From Pseudomonadota bacterium (GTDB taxonomy: Bacteria; Pseudomonadota; Gammaproteobacteria; Competibacterales; Competibacteraceae): DNA of 44,061 bases. Positions within the stretch are counted from its first letter, which is position 1; every line of letters starts with the position of its first letter. The notes below the pieces were generated by a model. It made no database searches, was not told the origin of the DNA, and saw only the letters and a program-made list of their open reading frames with translations. Shown here one piece after another: positions 22,674 to 27,786 of this stretch. A program made the translations under genes and the position numbers. The DNA lies in contig JAUPTV010000195.1 in the NCBI GenBank assembly GCA_030917925.1, positions 1 through 44,061 of the forward strand, in the 5' to 3' direction.

Positions 22674-23435
22674 TCAGTCTTCAACAACGACGCACGCCGT
22701 AAACAGGTAACCGACGCTGTGTTCGGTGAGAATGGGCGCAGGGCTGCCGGTTGCGGCTTCGATAGTGTGTCGGGTGCGACGCACCAGCGAGTCGAGGGCG
22801 CGATTGGCACTTTCGTCCTGCCGCTGGTAGAGTGCTTCGAGTAGCTTGTGGCGCGCCACGGTGCCCGCCGGTGAGGCGGTCAGTAGGGCCAACAGGTGCG
22901 CCTCTTTGGCGGTGAGTGCTATGCGCTTGGCTGTAGGGCTGGTCAGGATGCGTTGCCGCAGCGCGAACGTCCAGGCGGCTGGGATGACTGCTTTAGGCGC
23001 TGGCGCTTCGGTTGGCAGGCCTGCGGCGGCGGGTTGTGGCAGTGCTACTGGTGTGGCATGCGGTGTGGCGTGGCGTGCAACCAGGCTGGTAATAGCGGCG
23101 ACCAGTTCCCGCCCCTCAACGGGCTTGCCAAAAAACAGGTCGGCACCGACGCGGTAGCACTCGATGCGGCTGTCCAGCGTGTCGCGCGCGGTGATGACGA
23201 TGATGAGGCAGTCGGTATTGCGCCGCAGGTAGTCGACGAGGACTTCGCCCGCCTGGTCGGGCAGCCCCAGATCGACCACAGCCACGTCGAAGCGGTGTAC
23301 GGCGAGTTCGCTGTAGAACGAGAGGCAATCGCCGACAGCCGTGGTGGGAAAACCGACAAGCTTCAGATAGCAGGCAAGACTGTCGCGCAATAACGGGTCG
23401 TCTTCGACGATCACGACGTGGATGGAGGCGATCAT
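22674..23435 (-). CDS. OmpR-like response regulator, partner of the broken 7TM kinase
   Basis: This encodes 253 residues. The receiver domain has VEDD, phospho-acceptor Asp55 (VVDLGLPDQAG), ITAR and GKPV. An Ala/Pro-rich linker (~125-150) leads to a winged helix (ALDSLVRRTRHTIEAAT, ILTEHSVGYLF). The start ATG overlaps the ancestral stop of the sensor kinase as ATGA, so kinase and regulator were translated as a coupled pair. With the kinase broken, this regulator has lost its likely cognate input unless another kinase in the cell serves it. Confidence 0.9.
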   Translation of the reverse strand: MIASIHVVIVEDDPLLRDSLACYLKLVGFPTTAVGDCLSFYSELAVHRFDVAVVDLGLPDQAGEVLVDYLRRNTDCLIIVITARDTLDSRIECYRVGADLFFGKPVEGRELVAAITSLVARHATPHATPVALPQPAAAGLPTEAPAPKAVIPAAWTFALRQRILTSPTAKRIALTAKEAHLLALLTASPAGTVARHKLLEALYQRQDESANRALDSLVRRTRHTIEAATGSPAPILTEHSVGYLFTACVVVED

Positions 23436-24843
23436 CCCCGCTTCTCCGCCAAGTAACGCGACAGGTGCAGGGTGATTTCGAAGCGGTCGAGCGCGTCAAG
23501 CCGGATGGTCGTCGTGCCGCCCATGTCTTCGACAAGCTTTTTGACGATATCGCTTTTCCCGGTGAAAGCCGGATTTCCGGATTCCCCTCCTTGGCAAAGG
23601 AGGGGTGGCGCGTTAGCGCCGGGGTGGTTCGGGAAGTCCGCTGATCAGCCGGAAAGGCAATATACAGGCCCATGCCAATGCCGTCCGCACCGTGGCTGTT
23701 GGCCCCACGCACATTCTTTTCCAGCAGGCGTTGTGGACTCTGACCCGGCGAAGCAGCACAGTGGTTAGCGATGGCAATGGCCACCCCCTCGGCAAGTGCT
23801 GCGATGCGCACATCAATAACGCTGTCAGGCCGCGCGTATTTTTTGACGTTGTCGAGCAGGTTGCGCAAGACGGTTTTCAGGAATTCGGGGTCAGCCGTGA
23901 CGCACACAGAATCATCTTCACAGTCGAAAGCATAGCGGTGGTAGCCAGCATTCATGATGAAGTTCGCCTCGGCAACCAATGTGCGCAGCAACAAGGCGGG
24001 CGCCAGCCGTTCGACGCGGACACTACGATGCCCACCCCAGTCATCAACATTCTGAGAACGATTGAAAATATGACCAAGGCGCTTGACAGCGATGACCATG
24101 CTGGCCAGGCTTTTCTGGCGTTGAGCTTCGTCATTGCTAAGGCCAAGGATGTCGAGGTTGGTACTCAGGATGGTGAGTGGCGTGCGATATTCGTGGGCGA
24201 TGAGGTCGATGAACCGGCCCTTGCGTTCGTGCAATTGCTTTTCACGCTGAACGTCTTGGGCAGCGCGCTGGGTGTTTTCCAGTGCCTGGCGATGGGACTC
24301 GCGCAGTGCGCGGTGGCGCTCGCTCAGCACCAGATGCAGTGCAATGACGAAGCCCAGGGTGGTGACCTGCAGGTTGTACTGCAAGGCGTAAAAGGTCGAA
24401 TAAATGCCCAAGACGTTCAATATGGCGATCAAAAAACCGATCATGCTAAACAAGTTGGCGATGAACAACAGGCCGCTGCCAGCGTCCTTGACGCGCCAGA
24501 GGAGGAACGTGCGCCAAAAGCCGACACCCATCATCAGTAAGATAAAGTTGAAAATCAACGGTGCAACCACGGTGAAATGACCCGTGAACCAACTGATGCA
24601 GCATCCGAGGGCCACCACGATGCCAAACCGATAGGTGTTGAGTAACAAACGCTCAGCCGGTGTGACCTGAAACAGACGAGGATAGAAGGCAAACGAGGCA
24701 GCGATGACCAGAAACGACATCAGTCTGCCCAGGGCATCGGTGAAGGCCGGGCGGTCTGGAATCAGGTATTGCGCAGCGAAACCCCCGTTGCAGATCAAGG
24801 ACACCCAAATGCTGGCGACAAAGACCAAAAACCACCGCAGCAA
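23432..24843 (-). pseudogene. kinase portion of a 7TM sensor histidine kinase, disrupted by a palindromic element
   Basis: Continues in the same frame from the fragment at 24856 after an in-frame TGA. It holds the remaining helices of a 7TMR-DISM sensor (IWVSLICNGGFAAQYL, FGIVVALGCCISWF, LIFNFILLMMGVGF), then HisKA (DLIAHEYRTPLTIL) and HATPase (LKTVLRNLLDNVKKYA, GIGMGLYI). There the 111-bp element plus a duplicated TA (113 bp) shifts the frame. The open frame then runs on to 23116 as nonsense over the regulator gene. The true tail, VKKLVEDMGG to the stop at 23432-23434, follows in another frame. The hybrid lacks the end of the ATP-binding domain and is probably inactive. Confidence 0.85.
23550..23660. 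mobile_element. MITE-like palindromic element, copy 2, inside the kinase gene
   Basis: 111 bp, inverted relative to copy 1 and nearly identical to it. It is flanked by TA at 23548-23549 and 23661-23662. Taking out the element and one TA joins CTGTA to TATCGTC, which reads GLYIVKKLVEDMGG, the expected G-box of a histidine kinase. This is strong evidence for insertion into a TA target with TA duplication. TA duplication is typical of elements moved by IS630/Tc1-mariner transposases; no such transposase is in the window. Confidence 0.9.
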
Positions 24844-24855
24844 GGGGTCGTGCAG

Positions 24856-25452
24856 TCAGAGACCGGAAATTAAGTTCAGCGCCATGATGGCCAGCAGCAC
24901 GCCGAGAATGCCAATCAGCAAGCCGTAATCCAGCGCCATGGCCGCATGAAAGTGGTCTGGTGCCCATAGGCGCGGCACAAGAATTGAGGTGCTTCTGGTC
25001 TGTAGGCGCAGGTAGTAGATGCGTGGTGTCTCGTCTGGCGTATGTAGCTTGAAAATGAAACCCCGGTAGTCCACCTCGCGTGTGCTGAAGGGCAATTGGT
25101 CGCCGGCGCGGCGCTCCAGAAAAGTGCCGGGGTGCAGCGGGTCAGGCTCATACAAGCGCAGGTCGTCCACATACGGAGGCAGGAGGTCGAGCCACCATTC
25201 GCCCGCTGGTGCCACGACGGTGAAGCGCAGCCAATGCACATTGCGCGTGTAACCGGCTGCCAAGCCACTAGGGATAGGCTTGAAGCGCTGATCAGCGGCA
25301 CTGGCAACGGCAGAGATATCCATGTCGCCTTGCGGATCAACCAGCACGGCCAGATCGCGCAAGACGGGGACATCTGTAGCCATGGCCTGACCGCCAATCA
25401 GGATGGCGGTGAAAAGCAGCAGTAGGCGCGAGAAAGAGACGAAGCCGGACAT
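24856..25452 (-). pseudogene. sensor (7TMR-DISMED2) fragment of the split 7TM histidine kinase
   Basis: 198 residues before a TGA at 24856-24858. A signal peptide (LLLLFTAILIGGQAMA) precedes a DISMED2-like extracellular carbohydrate/ligand-binding domain (WLRFTVVAPAGEWWLDLLPP, YYLRLQTRSTSILVPRLW) and the first membrane helix (YGLLIGILGVLLAIMALNLI). The same frame resumes at once after the TGA with LHDPLLRWFLVF. A single base change (for example TGG or CGA to TGA) is therefore enough to explain the split. The upstream part alone could still make a one-helix periplasmic protein. Confidence 0.8.
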
Positions 25453-25519
25453 GGGTGAAGTCTATCTGTGTGGATTGGGCGTGGTTCAAAACCGGGTGAT
25501 CAACCGCATGCGAATAGTC

Positions 25520-25717
25520 CTTTGACATCCTACCGACCCTAAAGAACAGGGGATTCCCCTGTAGAGGGTATGATGCCCCATACCGAGAACACTGAATGTT
25601 CTCTGCTCTCCCCCATAGGACAAGCCCTATGGGTGGCACAACCCACCGGCAACAGGTGGGCCGAAACTGAATGCTTTTGAACACGATCAAGGTTTTACCT
25701 GCTCATCTTTTGAGCAG
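25520..25717 (-). ncRNA. six-hairpin structured RNA-like element, possible TnpB guide-RNA (omega RNA) remnant
   Basis: Six hairpins stand in a row: 25546-25562 (ACAGGGG stem), 25567-25584 (GGTATG), 25585-25603 (GAGAACA), 25612-25633 (CCCATAGG), 25642-25660 (CCCACC) and 25699-25717 (CTGCTCA). All stems are perfect, with loops of 3-7 bases. On the minus strand the array ends in GGTAGGATGTCAAA, which resembles the right ends of IS200/IS605-type elements, where the TnpB guide RNA scaffold stops just before the guide. No tnpB gene is present. The family assignment is a memory-based inference; the hairpins themselves are plain in the sequence. The frame across it (to 25690) is not convincing as protein. 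Confidence 0.5.
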
Positions 25718-25930
25718 AACCACAGACCTTAAATTGCCAAAGAGCGAACTATGGTCGGTGGCGTAATCGCGATGGCCGACATAACCACTATGGCAGAACA
25801 GTAGGCGAACTTCGTTCGCCGCGCTGTCGGCAACCACTTCAATCGGGCGTTTCGGCGCAAATTCGGTCATCCGCCGGGGCAGTTGCGCAAGGAGCAGCGG
25901 ACCGGGTTGGGTTAGGTGAGGGCGGACCAT
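25703..25930 (-). CDS. small hypothetical protein or gene remnant
   Basis: 75 residues with ATG after a GGGGG stretch. The middle (APKRPIEVVADSAANEVRLL, HSGYVGHRDYATDHSSLFG) has coding-like codon use, but I recognise no family. Its end runs into the hairpin array, and it contains a further perfect hairpin (GGCGAAC/GTTCGCC, 25803-25819). It could be the truncated end of a gene cut by the structured element. It is divergent from the AAA gene at 26014. Confidence 0.3.
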   Translation of the reverse strand: MVRPHLTQPGPLLLAQLPRRMTEFAPKRPIEVVADSAANEVRLLFCHSGYVGHRDYATDHSSLFGNLRSVVLLKR

Positions 25931-26013: not shown

Positions 26014-27786
26014 ATGAAATTCCCCTACGCCATTAACGATTTCGGCACACTAATCCAGGAAGGCTACTTCTATCAGGACCGCACTGACCGAATTCCCCAA
26101 CTCGAAGATGCCGGACGCCAACTGATCTTCATCCGCCCCCGCCGGTTTGGGAAAAGCCTGCTCCTGTCCATGCTGGAGCATTACTACGATGTGAACCGCG
26201 CCGATCAATTTGACGCGCTGTTCGGAAACCTGGCGATGGGCCGGAATCCCACGCCGCTGCATAACCAGTACTGCATCATGAAATGGGACTTTTCGCTGGT
26301 GAACGCCCAGGGCAGCTTGCCGGAAATCAAGGCCGCCCTGTATCAGCACGTCAATGACCGGGTAACCCAGTTCGCCGCCCGGTACGCCGCCCGACTGACC
26401 CAGCCCATCGCCATCCACCCGACCAATGCGGTCTCCTCCCTGGAGTCAGCCCGATTTGCCGCCCAGGAATCCGGTCAGGCCATTTACTTATTAATCGATG
26501 AATACGATAACTTCGCCAATGACGTGCTGATGACTGGACGGAAACCGGAGTATTACGAAGGCTTGCTCTATGGCGAAGGGGCGTTAAAGACAATCTTCAA
26601 GACGGTGAAAGCCGGTGTCGGGCAGGGCATCGACCGAGTGTTTATCACCGGGGTATCCCCTATCGTCCTCAGCGACATGACCAGCGGCTACAACGTCGGC
26701 GAAGACATTTATCTGAAAGCCACCTTCAACAACTTGTGTGGGTTCACGGAAACCGAAATCGCCGCCCTGCTGGATCGGCTGGCAGCGGAAGGCGGTTCCT
26801 GGTCGCCGGCGGAGGCTCTGGACCTGATGCGCACGTTTTATAACGGCTATTGCTTCAGCCAGGACAGTCACGAGCGGGTCTATAACCCGACCCTGAGCCT
26901 GTATTTTCTCAAAGCCCTTCAAACCGATGGTCGCTATCCGCACGAAATGCTGGACGAGAATCTGGCGATGGACCGCAGCAAATTGCGCTACATCGCGGAG
27001 TTGCCCCATGGCGAGGAGGTGCTGGCTCAGGCGCTGAATGGCGAAGAAGGCGTATTGATTCCCCGCCTGGCCAAACGCTTCGGCGTGGCCGATGTGCTGA
27101 TCGCGGTTAAGGATCAGCCGTTTATGGCGTCCCTGCTCTACTACTTCGGCATCCTCACCCTCACCGGGGTGGGGATTCTCGGTAAGTCCATTCTCAACAT
27201 CCCCAATCTGGTCGCCCGCTCGCTGTATGTCGAACGCCTGCGGGAGATGTGGCTGCCCACCTACGAGGATCGTCAAACCATTCCCCGGCTGGCGGAAAAC
27301 TTCTATCTTCGGGGCGATTTAGCCCCCCTGGTCGAATTTATCGAACAGCGCTACTTCCCGATCCTGTCCAATCGGGACTATCGCTGGAGCAATGAACTGA
27401 TGATCAAGATCGCTTTCCTGACTCTGCTGTTCGATGACCGGCTGTATATGATGGTGTCCGAAACCGAGATGGATCATGGCTATATCGACCTGAGCCTGAT
27501 TGTCCGCTCGGATATGCGGCGCTTTCAGGCGCTGGATCTGCTGCTGGAATTCAAATATGTCAGCCTCAAGGATCTGAAACTGAGCGGGGAACAGGTGCGG
27601 GAGAAGTCCATGACCGAGTTGGCGGCGCTGGCGGTGGTGAAAGCGGAACTGGACGCCGCCGCCGAGCAGGCGCGACGGTATGGCGCAGCGCTGTCAGAAC
27701 GCTATGGCCTGACTGATCTGCGCCTGTATGCGGTGGCGGGGATTGGCTTGGAACGGGTGGTCTGGCAAGCGGTGACACGAGCGTGA
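26014..27786 (+). CDS. AAA-ATPase-like / PD-(D/E)XK nuclease family protein
   Basis: This encodes 590 residues. The N-terminal AAA-ATPase-like domain has Walker A-like RPRRFGKSLLLSML (near 45) and Walker B-like LLIDEYDNF. The C-terminal part carries a PD-(D/E)XK-type core (DLLLEFKYV near 515, with DLSLIV before it), as in the DUF1703/PDDEXK_9 family. These proteins are common, often multi-copy, in environmental bacteria and anaerobes. A DNA-processing or defence role is often suggested but not shown. GGAG lies about 10 bases before the ATG. It sits inside the accessory segment and is the only gene there on the plus strand, which supports independent arrival. Confidence 0.85.
   Translation: MKFPYAINDFGTLIQEGYFYQDRTDRIPQLEDAGRQLIFIRPRRFGKSLLLSMLEHYYDVNRADQFDALFGNLAMGRNPTPLHNQYCIMKWDFSLVNAQGSLPEIKAALYQHVNDRVTQFAARYAARLTQPIAIHPTNAVSSLESARFAAQESGQAIYLLIDEYDNFANDVLMTGRKPEYYEGLLYGEGALKTIFKTVKAGVGQGIDRVFITGVSPIVLSDMTSGYNVGEDIYLKATFNNLCGFTETEIAALLDRLAAEGGSWSPAEALDLMRTFYNGYCFSQDSHERVYNPTLSLYFLKALQTDGRYPHEMLDENLAMDRSKLRYIAELPHGEEVLAQALNGEEGVLIPRLAKRFGVADVLIAVKDQPFMASLLYYFGILTLTGVGILGKSILNIPNLVARSLYVERLREMWLPTYEDRQTIPRLAENFYLRGDLAPLVEFIEQRYFPILSNRDYRWSNELMIKIAFLTLLFDDRLYMMVSETEMDHGYIDLSLIVRSDMRRFQALDLLLEFKYVSLKDLKLSGEQVREKSMTELAALAVVKAELDAAAEQARRYGAALSERYGLTDLRLYAVAGIGLERVVWQAVTRA

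What the first reader, a model, noticed from the sequence alone, without database searches (positions are those of the whole stretch)
25499..25819. Dense array of perfect hairpins without a protein: orphan guide-RNA-like element
Six perfect hairpins in ~170 bp plus one at 25803 cannot be chance. The minus-strand end GGATGTCAAA resembles the end of TnpB omega RNAs, and the next bases (from 25519 downward) would be a guide. No tnpB is present, so it may be a stranded RNA acting in trans, a palindrome-associated element or a different structured RNA.
Basis: partly seen in the sequence, partly recalled or inferred. Interest (0 to 1): 0.65.

Follow-up and report, generated by a model that had tools for sequence, protein, structure and literature searches.

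The report
Protein-less transposon carrying an omega-like RNA
The hairpin cluster is one slightly worn copy of a ~346-bp mobile element that has no protein gene but keeps the ends of an IS200/IS605 transposon and a conserved RNA ending like the guide RNA of the TnpB nuclease, so it looks like a guide-RNA gene that borrows its enzymes from full-size relatives.

Summary
The hairpins are real and far above chance. They are the minus-strand RNA of a 344-bp element (window 25865-25522) that is present four times in this genome and in at least five other Competibacteraceae genomes. Intact copies begin right after TTAC (or TTAT), end GGATGTCAA, lie at unrelated sites and contain no protein gene. Full-size tnpA/tnpB or tnpB elements in the same genomes share the left end, target motif and right end. 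One copy sits after a TTAC in the second-last codon of truA; removing it restores the ending seen in a relative. The last ~85 nt share with those tnpB elements the core found in the ISDra2 omega RNA: a stem whose loop pairs with the 3' end, then a tetraloop hairpin, then the flank as guide. Upstream lie four covarying hairpins and a -10-like box, not found in tnpB elements with the same right end. Overall 20 of 63 pairs show compensatory changes (0/500 shuffles). Best reading: a PATE-like non-autonomous IS200/IS605 element that is a stand-alone omega-RNA gene served in trans by TnpA and TnpB. Mobility and RNA structure are well supported; TnpB loading is inferred. The window copy has a ruined left end, so it probably no longer moves.

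The parts
25522..25865 (-). whole element (344 bp in this copy, 346 bp in two intact copies); no protein gene
   Evidence: boundaries from alignment of copies at unrelated sites; intact copies start after TTAC and end GGATGTCAA
25866..25869 (-). target/TAM position: TGAC here, TTAC in intact copies (TTAT in the C94 and G001:C501 copies)
25818..25865 (-). left end, decayed here (intact: CCGAATTGCGCGAAAAGCCTCGGCCTTCAGGCCGGGGATGGATAGCGC with hairpin)
   Evidence: 14 of 34 conserved sites changed, plus 3 gaps, versus 7 of 147 in the RNA core
25804..25820 (-). hairpin GGCGAACGAAGTTCGCC, shared with the left ends of full-size tnpA/tnpB elements
25787..25795 (-). extended -10-like box TGCCATAGT (family TGCTAtACT); predicted start near 25780
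   Evidence: a similar box stands in nearly all copies; the sigma-70 two-hexamer scan finds no site; expression not tested
25522..25742 (-). conserved RNA (221 nt), model R1
   Evidence: covariance model built, searched; 20/63 pairs with double-sided changes
25687..25732 (-). 5' module: stem TTAAGG/CCTTGA around hairpin 25699-25717 (CTGCTCA/TGAGCAG), with TATGCGGTT (TCTGTGGTT here) and GTAAAA on the two sides
   Evidence: hairpin switches to GTCTTCG/CGAAGAC in other copies; TATGCGGTT..GTAAAA recurs in a second protein-less family
25639..25663 (-). hairpin 3 CGGCCCACC/GGTGGGTTG
   Evidence: 95.9% of cells paired
25610..25636 (-). hairpin 4 CCACCCATAGGGC..GTCCTATGGGGG
   Evidence: 5 pairs with double-sided changes
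25585..25603 (-). hairpin 5 GAGAACA/TGTTCTC
   Evidence: 96.6% of cells paired, one pair with a double-sided change
25567..25584 (-). omega-RNA stem 1 GGTATG-GGGCAT-CATACC; its loop (25573-25577) can pair with 25524-25528 (pseudoknot)
   Evidence: stem 100% paired over 19 sequences, 5 of 6 pairs covary, tnpB elements included; pseudoknot 100% paired, 3 of 5 pairs invariant
25531..25553 (-). right-end hairpin (omega-RNA stem 4, UUUA loop), preceded by GAAT; weakened in this copy
   Evidence: UUUA loop as in the ISDra2 omega RNA (PMC10097598)
25506..25521 (-). putative 16-nt guide AGGACTATTCGCATGC (flanking DNA)
   Evidence: position by analogy with ISDra2 (PMC8612924); no TTAC-flanked second match in the genome

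Best explanation
The feature is one copy of a non-autonomous (PATE-like, MITE-like) member of the IS200/IS605 group that has kept both transposon ends and carries a stand-alone RNA gene where relatives carry proteins. Proposed working: (1) TnpA (Y1 transposase) from full-size elements recognises the end hairpins and moves the element to TTAC/TTAT sites (movement and sites supported by sequence; the enzyme step is inferred). (2) A conserved -10-like box just inside the left end drives an RNA of about 260 nt plus flanking sequence (inferred). (3) The 3' ~85 nt fold into the TnpB omega-RNA core, with stem 1, a pseudoknot to GATGTC and a UUUA hairpin, so that the right flank becomes the guide (structure supported, function inferred). 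(4) TnpB from full-size elements in the same genome uses this guide to cut the TTAC-flanked empty site left after excision, and repair restores the copy (inferred from the ISDra2 model). The four extra 5' hairpins probably stabilise the RNA or help it compete for TnpB, because here the scaffold need not double as coding sequence (inferred). The window copy has a ruined left end and a weak right-end hairpin, so it is probably immobile, though most of its RNA is intact.
For: Four copies in this genome and copies in G010 (4), G019 (2), G013 (2), G001 (2), G032 and a fragment in G024, at unrelated sites with sharp shared ends. Intact left ends follow TTAC or TTAT; the right end is GGATGTCAA. Natural empty-site comparison: the G010:C36 copy lies after TTAC in the second-last codon of truA; joined flanks read ..SMPGFYA*, relative G029 reads ..PMPGFDA*, the occupied gene reads ..SMPGFYPNCAKSPVLQGGDG*. 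Full-size elements with the same left end, TTAC and right end: G019:C69 and C8 (tnpA+tnpB), G010:C3 (tnpB). In G010 the same insertion in the left-end loop occurs in tnpB elements and in two mini copies. Copy C94 has TTAT and the left end of the TTAT-type elements C180/C69 of its own genome. tnpA and tnpB are present in this genome. RNA: 20/63 pairs with double-sided changes, 95.5% of cells paired versus 42-50% for slid partners, 0/500 shuffles reach the covariation score; stem 1 and pseudoknot are shared with tnpB-linked right ends; invariant G-U pairs fit RNA rather than DNA. The stem-1-loop pseudoknot and UUUA-loop hairpin match the plan of the ISDra2 omega RNA (PMC10097598).
Against: No transcript, TnpB binding or cleavage data. 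The consensus promoter scan finds no two-hexamer site. The 5' end of the RNA is bounded only by conservation. The guide of the window copy has no second target, so use on other sites is not indicated. The window copy has a decayed left end and a weakened right-end hairpin. In the partner TnpBs the canonical RuvC-II glutamate is Gly; nuclease competence rests on a glutamate six residues before the first CxxC (PMC10711439).
Confidence: 0.72

Rival explanations
1. A purely DNA-level miniature transposon: the hairpins matter only as single-stranded DNA (for TnpA binding or as filler), and any RNA is incidental.
For: End hairpins are what Y1 transposases bind; protein-less IS605 derivatives (PATEs) are known (PMC7290912).
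Against: Strong covariation lies in internal hairpins away from the ends; constant G-U pairs are kept; the pseudoknot and tetraloop core are kept; a -10-like box is conserved; the RNA core stays about 95% conserved at well-conserved sites in copies whose left end is lost.
Confidence: 0.2
2. A dead relic: the window copy is a decaying insertion with no present function, whatever the family does.
For: Left end changed at 14 of 34 conserved sites, TTAC changed to TGAC, right-end stem weakened, no second target for the guide.
Against: The other hairpins are still fully paired, with copy-specific sequence in hairpin 4; only 7 of 147 conserved RNA sites changed. This concerns the copy, not the family, and is compatible with the best explanation.
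Confidence: 0.5
3. The window copy has been taken up as a cis-acting leader: its RNA runs into the 5' region of the downstream minus-strand gene (7TMR-DISM receptor, start 25452, about 70 bp after the element) and shapes that gene's expression.
For: Position and orientation in the window; 7TMR-DISMED2 domain found.
Against: Other copies lie beside unrelated sequence and truA; the flanking gene is not found in relatives by DNA search, so conservation of the arrangement cannot be tested.
Confidence: 0.07
4. Guide RNA for a nuclease-dead TnpB homologue (TldR-like), giving RNA-guided repression instead of homing.
For: The canonical RuvC-II glutamate is replaced (Gly in nearly all) in the partner TnpBs.
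Against: The alternative glutamate (SERLSTQTC, six residues before CxxC) is present, as in E-alt TnpBs (PMC10711439); partner genes are still inside mobile elements.
Confidence: 0.06

Closest known systems
PATE (palindrome-associated transposable element) of IS605, e.g. in Halanaerobium hydrogeniformans (PMC7290912)
   Same: Protein-less element with the left-end hairpin, the tail of tnpB and the whole right end of an IS605 relative; thought to move in trans.
   Different: Here the middle is not a recognisable tnpB remnant: it is a ~200-nt sequence with a -10-like box and four extra covarying hairpins, conserved across genera of one family.
TnpB omega RNA / reRNA of IS200/IS605 (ISDra2: PMC8612924, PMC10097598)
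   Same: 3' core with stem 1, loop-to-3'-end pseudoknot, UUUA-loop hairpin, end at the transposon boundary, flank as guide; target motif TTAC as in IS608.
   Different: Not overlapping a tnpB gene, own promoter-like box, longer 5' part; function not tested.
Protein-less guide-RNA loci alongside TnpB or IscB
   Same: Stand-alone omega-RNA loci that may use a protein encoded elsewhere (from memory).
   Different: No sequence comparison was possible, so priority and overlap are uncertain.
TldR (nuclease-dead TnpB) guide RNAs
   Same: omega-RNA-like guide outside an active homing cycle (from general knowledge).
   Different: No neighbouring tldR; partner TnpBs carry the alternative catalytic glutamate.

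Membership tests
IS200/IS605 non-autonomous element (PATE/MITE) | multiple copies at unrelated sites with sharp shared ends | tested here: met
IS200/IS605 non-autonomous element (PATE/MITE) | insertion 3' of TTAC/TTAT without target duplication | tested here: met
   empty-site comparison in truA. The window copy itself has TGAC
IS200/IS605 non-autonomous element (PATE/MITE) | subterminal hairpins shared with full-size tnpA/tnpB elements | tested here: met
   G019:C69, C8; G010:C3; C180, C69. Left-end hairpin lost in the window copy
IS200/IS605 non-autonomous element (PATE/MITE) | no transposase or nuclease gene inside | tested here: met
   no significant TnpB similarity in the window; the overlapping 75-aa ORF has no Pfam match and its frame is broken in other copies (by eye)
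IS200/IS605 non-autonomous element (PATE/MITE) | excision and insertion by TnpA in trans | not testable with these tools
   needs an experiment
TnpB omega RNA | 3' scaffold core homologous to tnpB-linked right ends, with pseudoknot to the 3' end | tested here: met
TnpB omega RNA | scaffold ends at the transposon boundary, guide is flanking DNA | tested here: inconclusive
   boundary shown; use of the flank as guide is inferred
TnpB omega RNA | transcribed, bound by TnpB, directs cleavage | not testable with these tools
   no RNA or protein data available
Any RNA family of Rfam 15 (IscB/HEARO-type, CRISPR repeats and others) | covariance-model match | tested here: not met
   no match at gathering threshold; only two chance-level matches, E 3.1 and 5.3

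The most novel reading that the evidence does not exclude
A recurrent class of stand-alone guide-RNA transposons: in Competibacteraceae several protein-less IS200/IS605 families have each turned the element into a promoter plus an enlarged omega RNA that parasitises TnpA for movement and TnpB for retention, with extra RNA domains evolved once the scaffold was freed from coding for TnpB.
Probability: 0.4. Interest if true: 0.7.

Novelty: new variant of a known kind. Interest (0 to 1): 0.52.

Why it matters
If the RNA loads TnpB in trans, homing nucleases serve not only their own transposon but also protein-less parasites, and guide RNAs can evolve as independent mobile genes. The family also gives a natural series of enlarged, covarying omega scaffolds not constrained by a reading frame, useful for asking which parts of a TnpB guide matter, and a ready test of how such a parasite competes with the full-size element in one genome.

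Tried and rejected
Rfam at two thresholds: nothing. Viral contigs, phages and plasmids: no match. Exact-pattern scan of 84,980 species genomes: only Competibacteraceae; a 369-genome sample of the class: no match outside the family. Empty site of the window copy: flanking gene not found in relatives; the comparison was done on G010:C36 instead. Second target of the window's guide: none with TTAC and the intact seed (fewer hits than the reversed control). Peptide reading of the 75-aa ORF over the element: rejected, frame broken in other copies and no Pfam match. Pairing of TTGGCA near the 5' end of the RNA with the 3' end (RNAalifold helix): five invariant pairs, so neither supported nor refuted; it competes with the pseudoknot. 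Pairing of the element with its right flank in the window fold: flank-specific, taken as chance. Selection on the RNA after loss of the left end: suggestive only, since truncation or recombination of the left end would look alike.

Full report
OBSERVATION. The window holds 28 perfect hairpins with arms of at least 7 nt; five lie within 25499-25830, the densest spot, while shuffles of that stretch give 0.10 on average and 2 at most. Both strands fold better than all 200 shuffles. No Rfam family matches. The hairpin 25546-25562 is, however, private to this copy.

WHAT IT IS. A DNA search of the window's own genome (4.2 Mb, 299 contigs) found three more copies: C94 and C177 whole, C152 cut by a contig end. 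In 59 relatives, copies occur in G010, G019, G013, G001, G032 and as a fragment in G024. An RNA model (R1) recovers these and weaker relatives across 39 genomes of the family. The named records with the pattern are all Competibacteraceae, among them Candidatus Contendobacter odensis.

ENDS AND MOVEMENT. Aligned with their flanks, intact copies start directly after TTAC with CCGAATTGCGCGAAAAGCC and a left-end hairpin, and end GGATGTCAA; the flanks are unrelated. TTAC is the target of IS608, and TTGAT plays the same role for ISDra2 (PMC8612924). From my own knowledge of IS608, the AAAG before the left hairpin, the GAAT before the right hairpin and the terminal TCAA correspond to its guide and cleavage tetranucleotides. 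Two copies (C94; G001:C501) have TTAT instead, and C94 then also has the left end of the TTAT-type elements C180 and C69 of the same genome. In G010 the same insertion in the left-end loop is shared by tnpB elements and two mini copies. The G010:C36 copy gives a natural comparison: it lies after the TTAC in the second-last codon of truA (gene named by me from its sequence). Joined flanks end SMPGFYA*, the relative G029 ends PMPGFDA*, and the occupied gene ends SMPGFYPNCAKSPVLQGGDG*.

PARTNERS. The genome has nine TnpB-domain and three TnpA-domain matches. G019:C69 and C8 are tnpA+tnpB elements with the same left end, TTAC and right end; G010:C3 is a tnpB-only one. The right end of C180 and C69 overlaps the last codons of tnpB and matches the last ~68 nt of the mini-element. 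The partner TnpB (342 aa) matches PF07282 and PF01385 and ISDra2 TnpB (8bf8, E 3e-23). Its canonical RuvC-II glutamate is Gly, but a glutamate stands six residues before the first CxxC, the alternative position described in PMC10711439, so it may well be an active nuclease; this was not tested.

THE RNA. On 11 copies, 20 of 63 pairs have changes on both sides, 95.5% of cells are paired (42-50% with slid partners), and none of 500 shuffles reaches the covariation score. Hairpins 2 and 4 in particular occur in several different sequences that keep the pairing. On 19 right ends, nine of them from tnpB elements, stem 1 is 100% paired with five of six pairs covarying, and the pairing of its loop with GATGTC at the 3' end is kept in all, though three of those five pairs never vary. 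The ISDra2 omega RNA has the same plan: stem 1, a pseudoknot to the last nucleotides before the guide, and a final stem with a UUUA loop (PMC10097598). So the last ~85 nt are an omega-RNA core. The ~135 nt upstream (four hairpins and a closing stem) are not found by DNA search in tnpB elements with the same right end. The TATGCGGTT..GTAAAA module around hairpin 2 recurs in a second protein-less family (G016 with six near-identical copies read here, G010:C62, and in G007:C5). A third protein-less family is present twice in G026:C67. A TGCTAtACT box, an extended -10 promoter by eye, is conserved ahead of the RNA, though the two-hexamer scan finds nothing in the window copy.

THE WINDOW COPY. Its left end differs at 14 of 34 conserved sites and TTAC has become TGAC, against 7 of 147 sites in the RNA core. 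C177 shows the same contrast (24 of 37 against 3 of 147). This could mean selection on the RNA in immobile copies, but loss of the left end by truncation or recombination would look similar, so I do not press it. The right-end stem is weakened. No TTAC-flanked second match to its guide with an intact seed exists in the genome.

MECHANISM AND STATUS. Shown: mobile family, ends and target shared with full-size IS200/IS605 elements, conserved covarying RNA with an omega-RNA core. Inferred: transcription, TnpB loading, cutting of the empty site, role of the extra hairpins. Closest described objects are PATEs (PMC7290912); the papers on TnpB homing and on TnpB diversity that I wanted to compare were not held, so priority is uncertain. 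I rate it a new variant of a known kind.

Noticed in passing
G016 (L141, L142, L145, L154-L156), G010:C62 (L152), G000:C137 (L151): A second protein-less IS200/IS605 family, near-identical in G016, with a TCAT-like target, its own left end and an RNA related to the C47-type tnpB right end.
   Followed up: partly
G026:C67 (L130, two copies); G007:C5 (L143): Two more kinds of protein-less element with omega-RNA-like right ends and no TnpB similarity in the ~1.5 kb upstream.
   Followed up: partly
G000:C180, C69; G019:C69, C8; G010:C3: Partner TnpBs lack the canonical RuvC-II glutamate but have one six residues before the first CxxC (E-alt type), in elements of the IS200/IS605 kind.
   Followed up: partly
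G010:C3, G013:C113 (tnpB elements) and G013:C298 (mini-element): The same nested GAGCCTGCCCCCGCGTAGGCGG hairpin insertion in the right-end loop of full-size and mini elements.
   Followed up: no
window 23116-25452, minus strand: The 7TMR-DISM receptor / histidine kinase gene downstream of the element is split over two frames (24856-25452 and 23116-24843) and looks frame-shifted.
   Followed up: no
window 26014-27786, plus strand: AAA-ATPase_like plus PDDEXK_9 protein (PF09820, PF08011) on the other side of the element.
   Followed up: no
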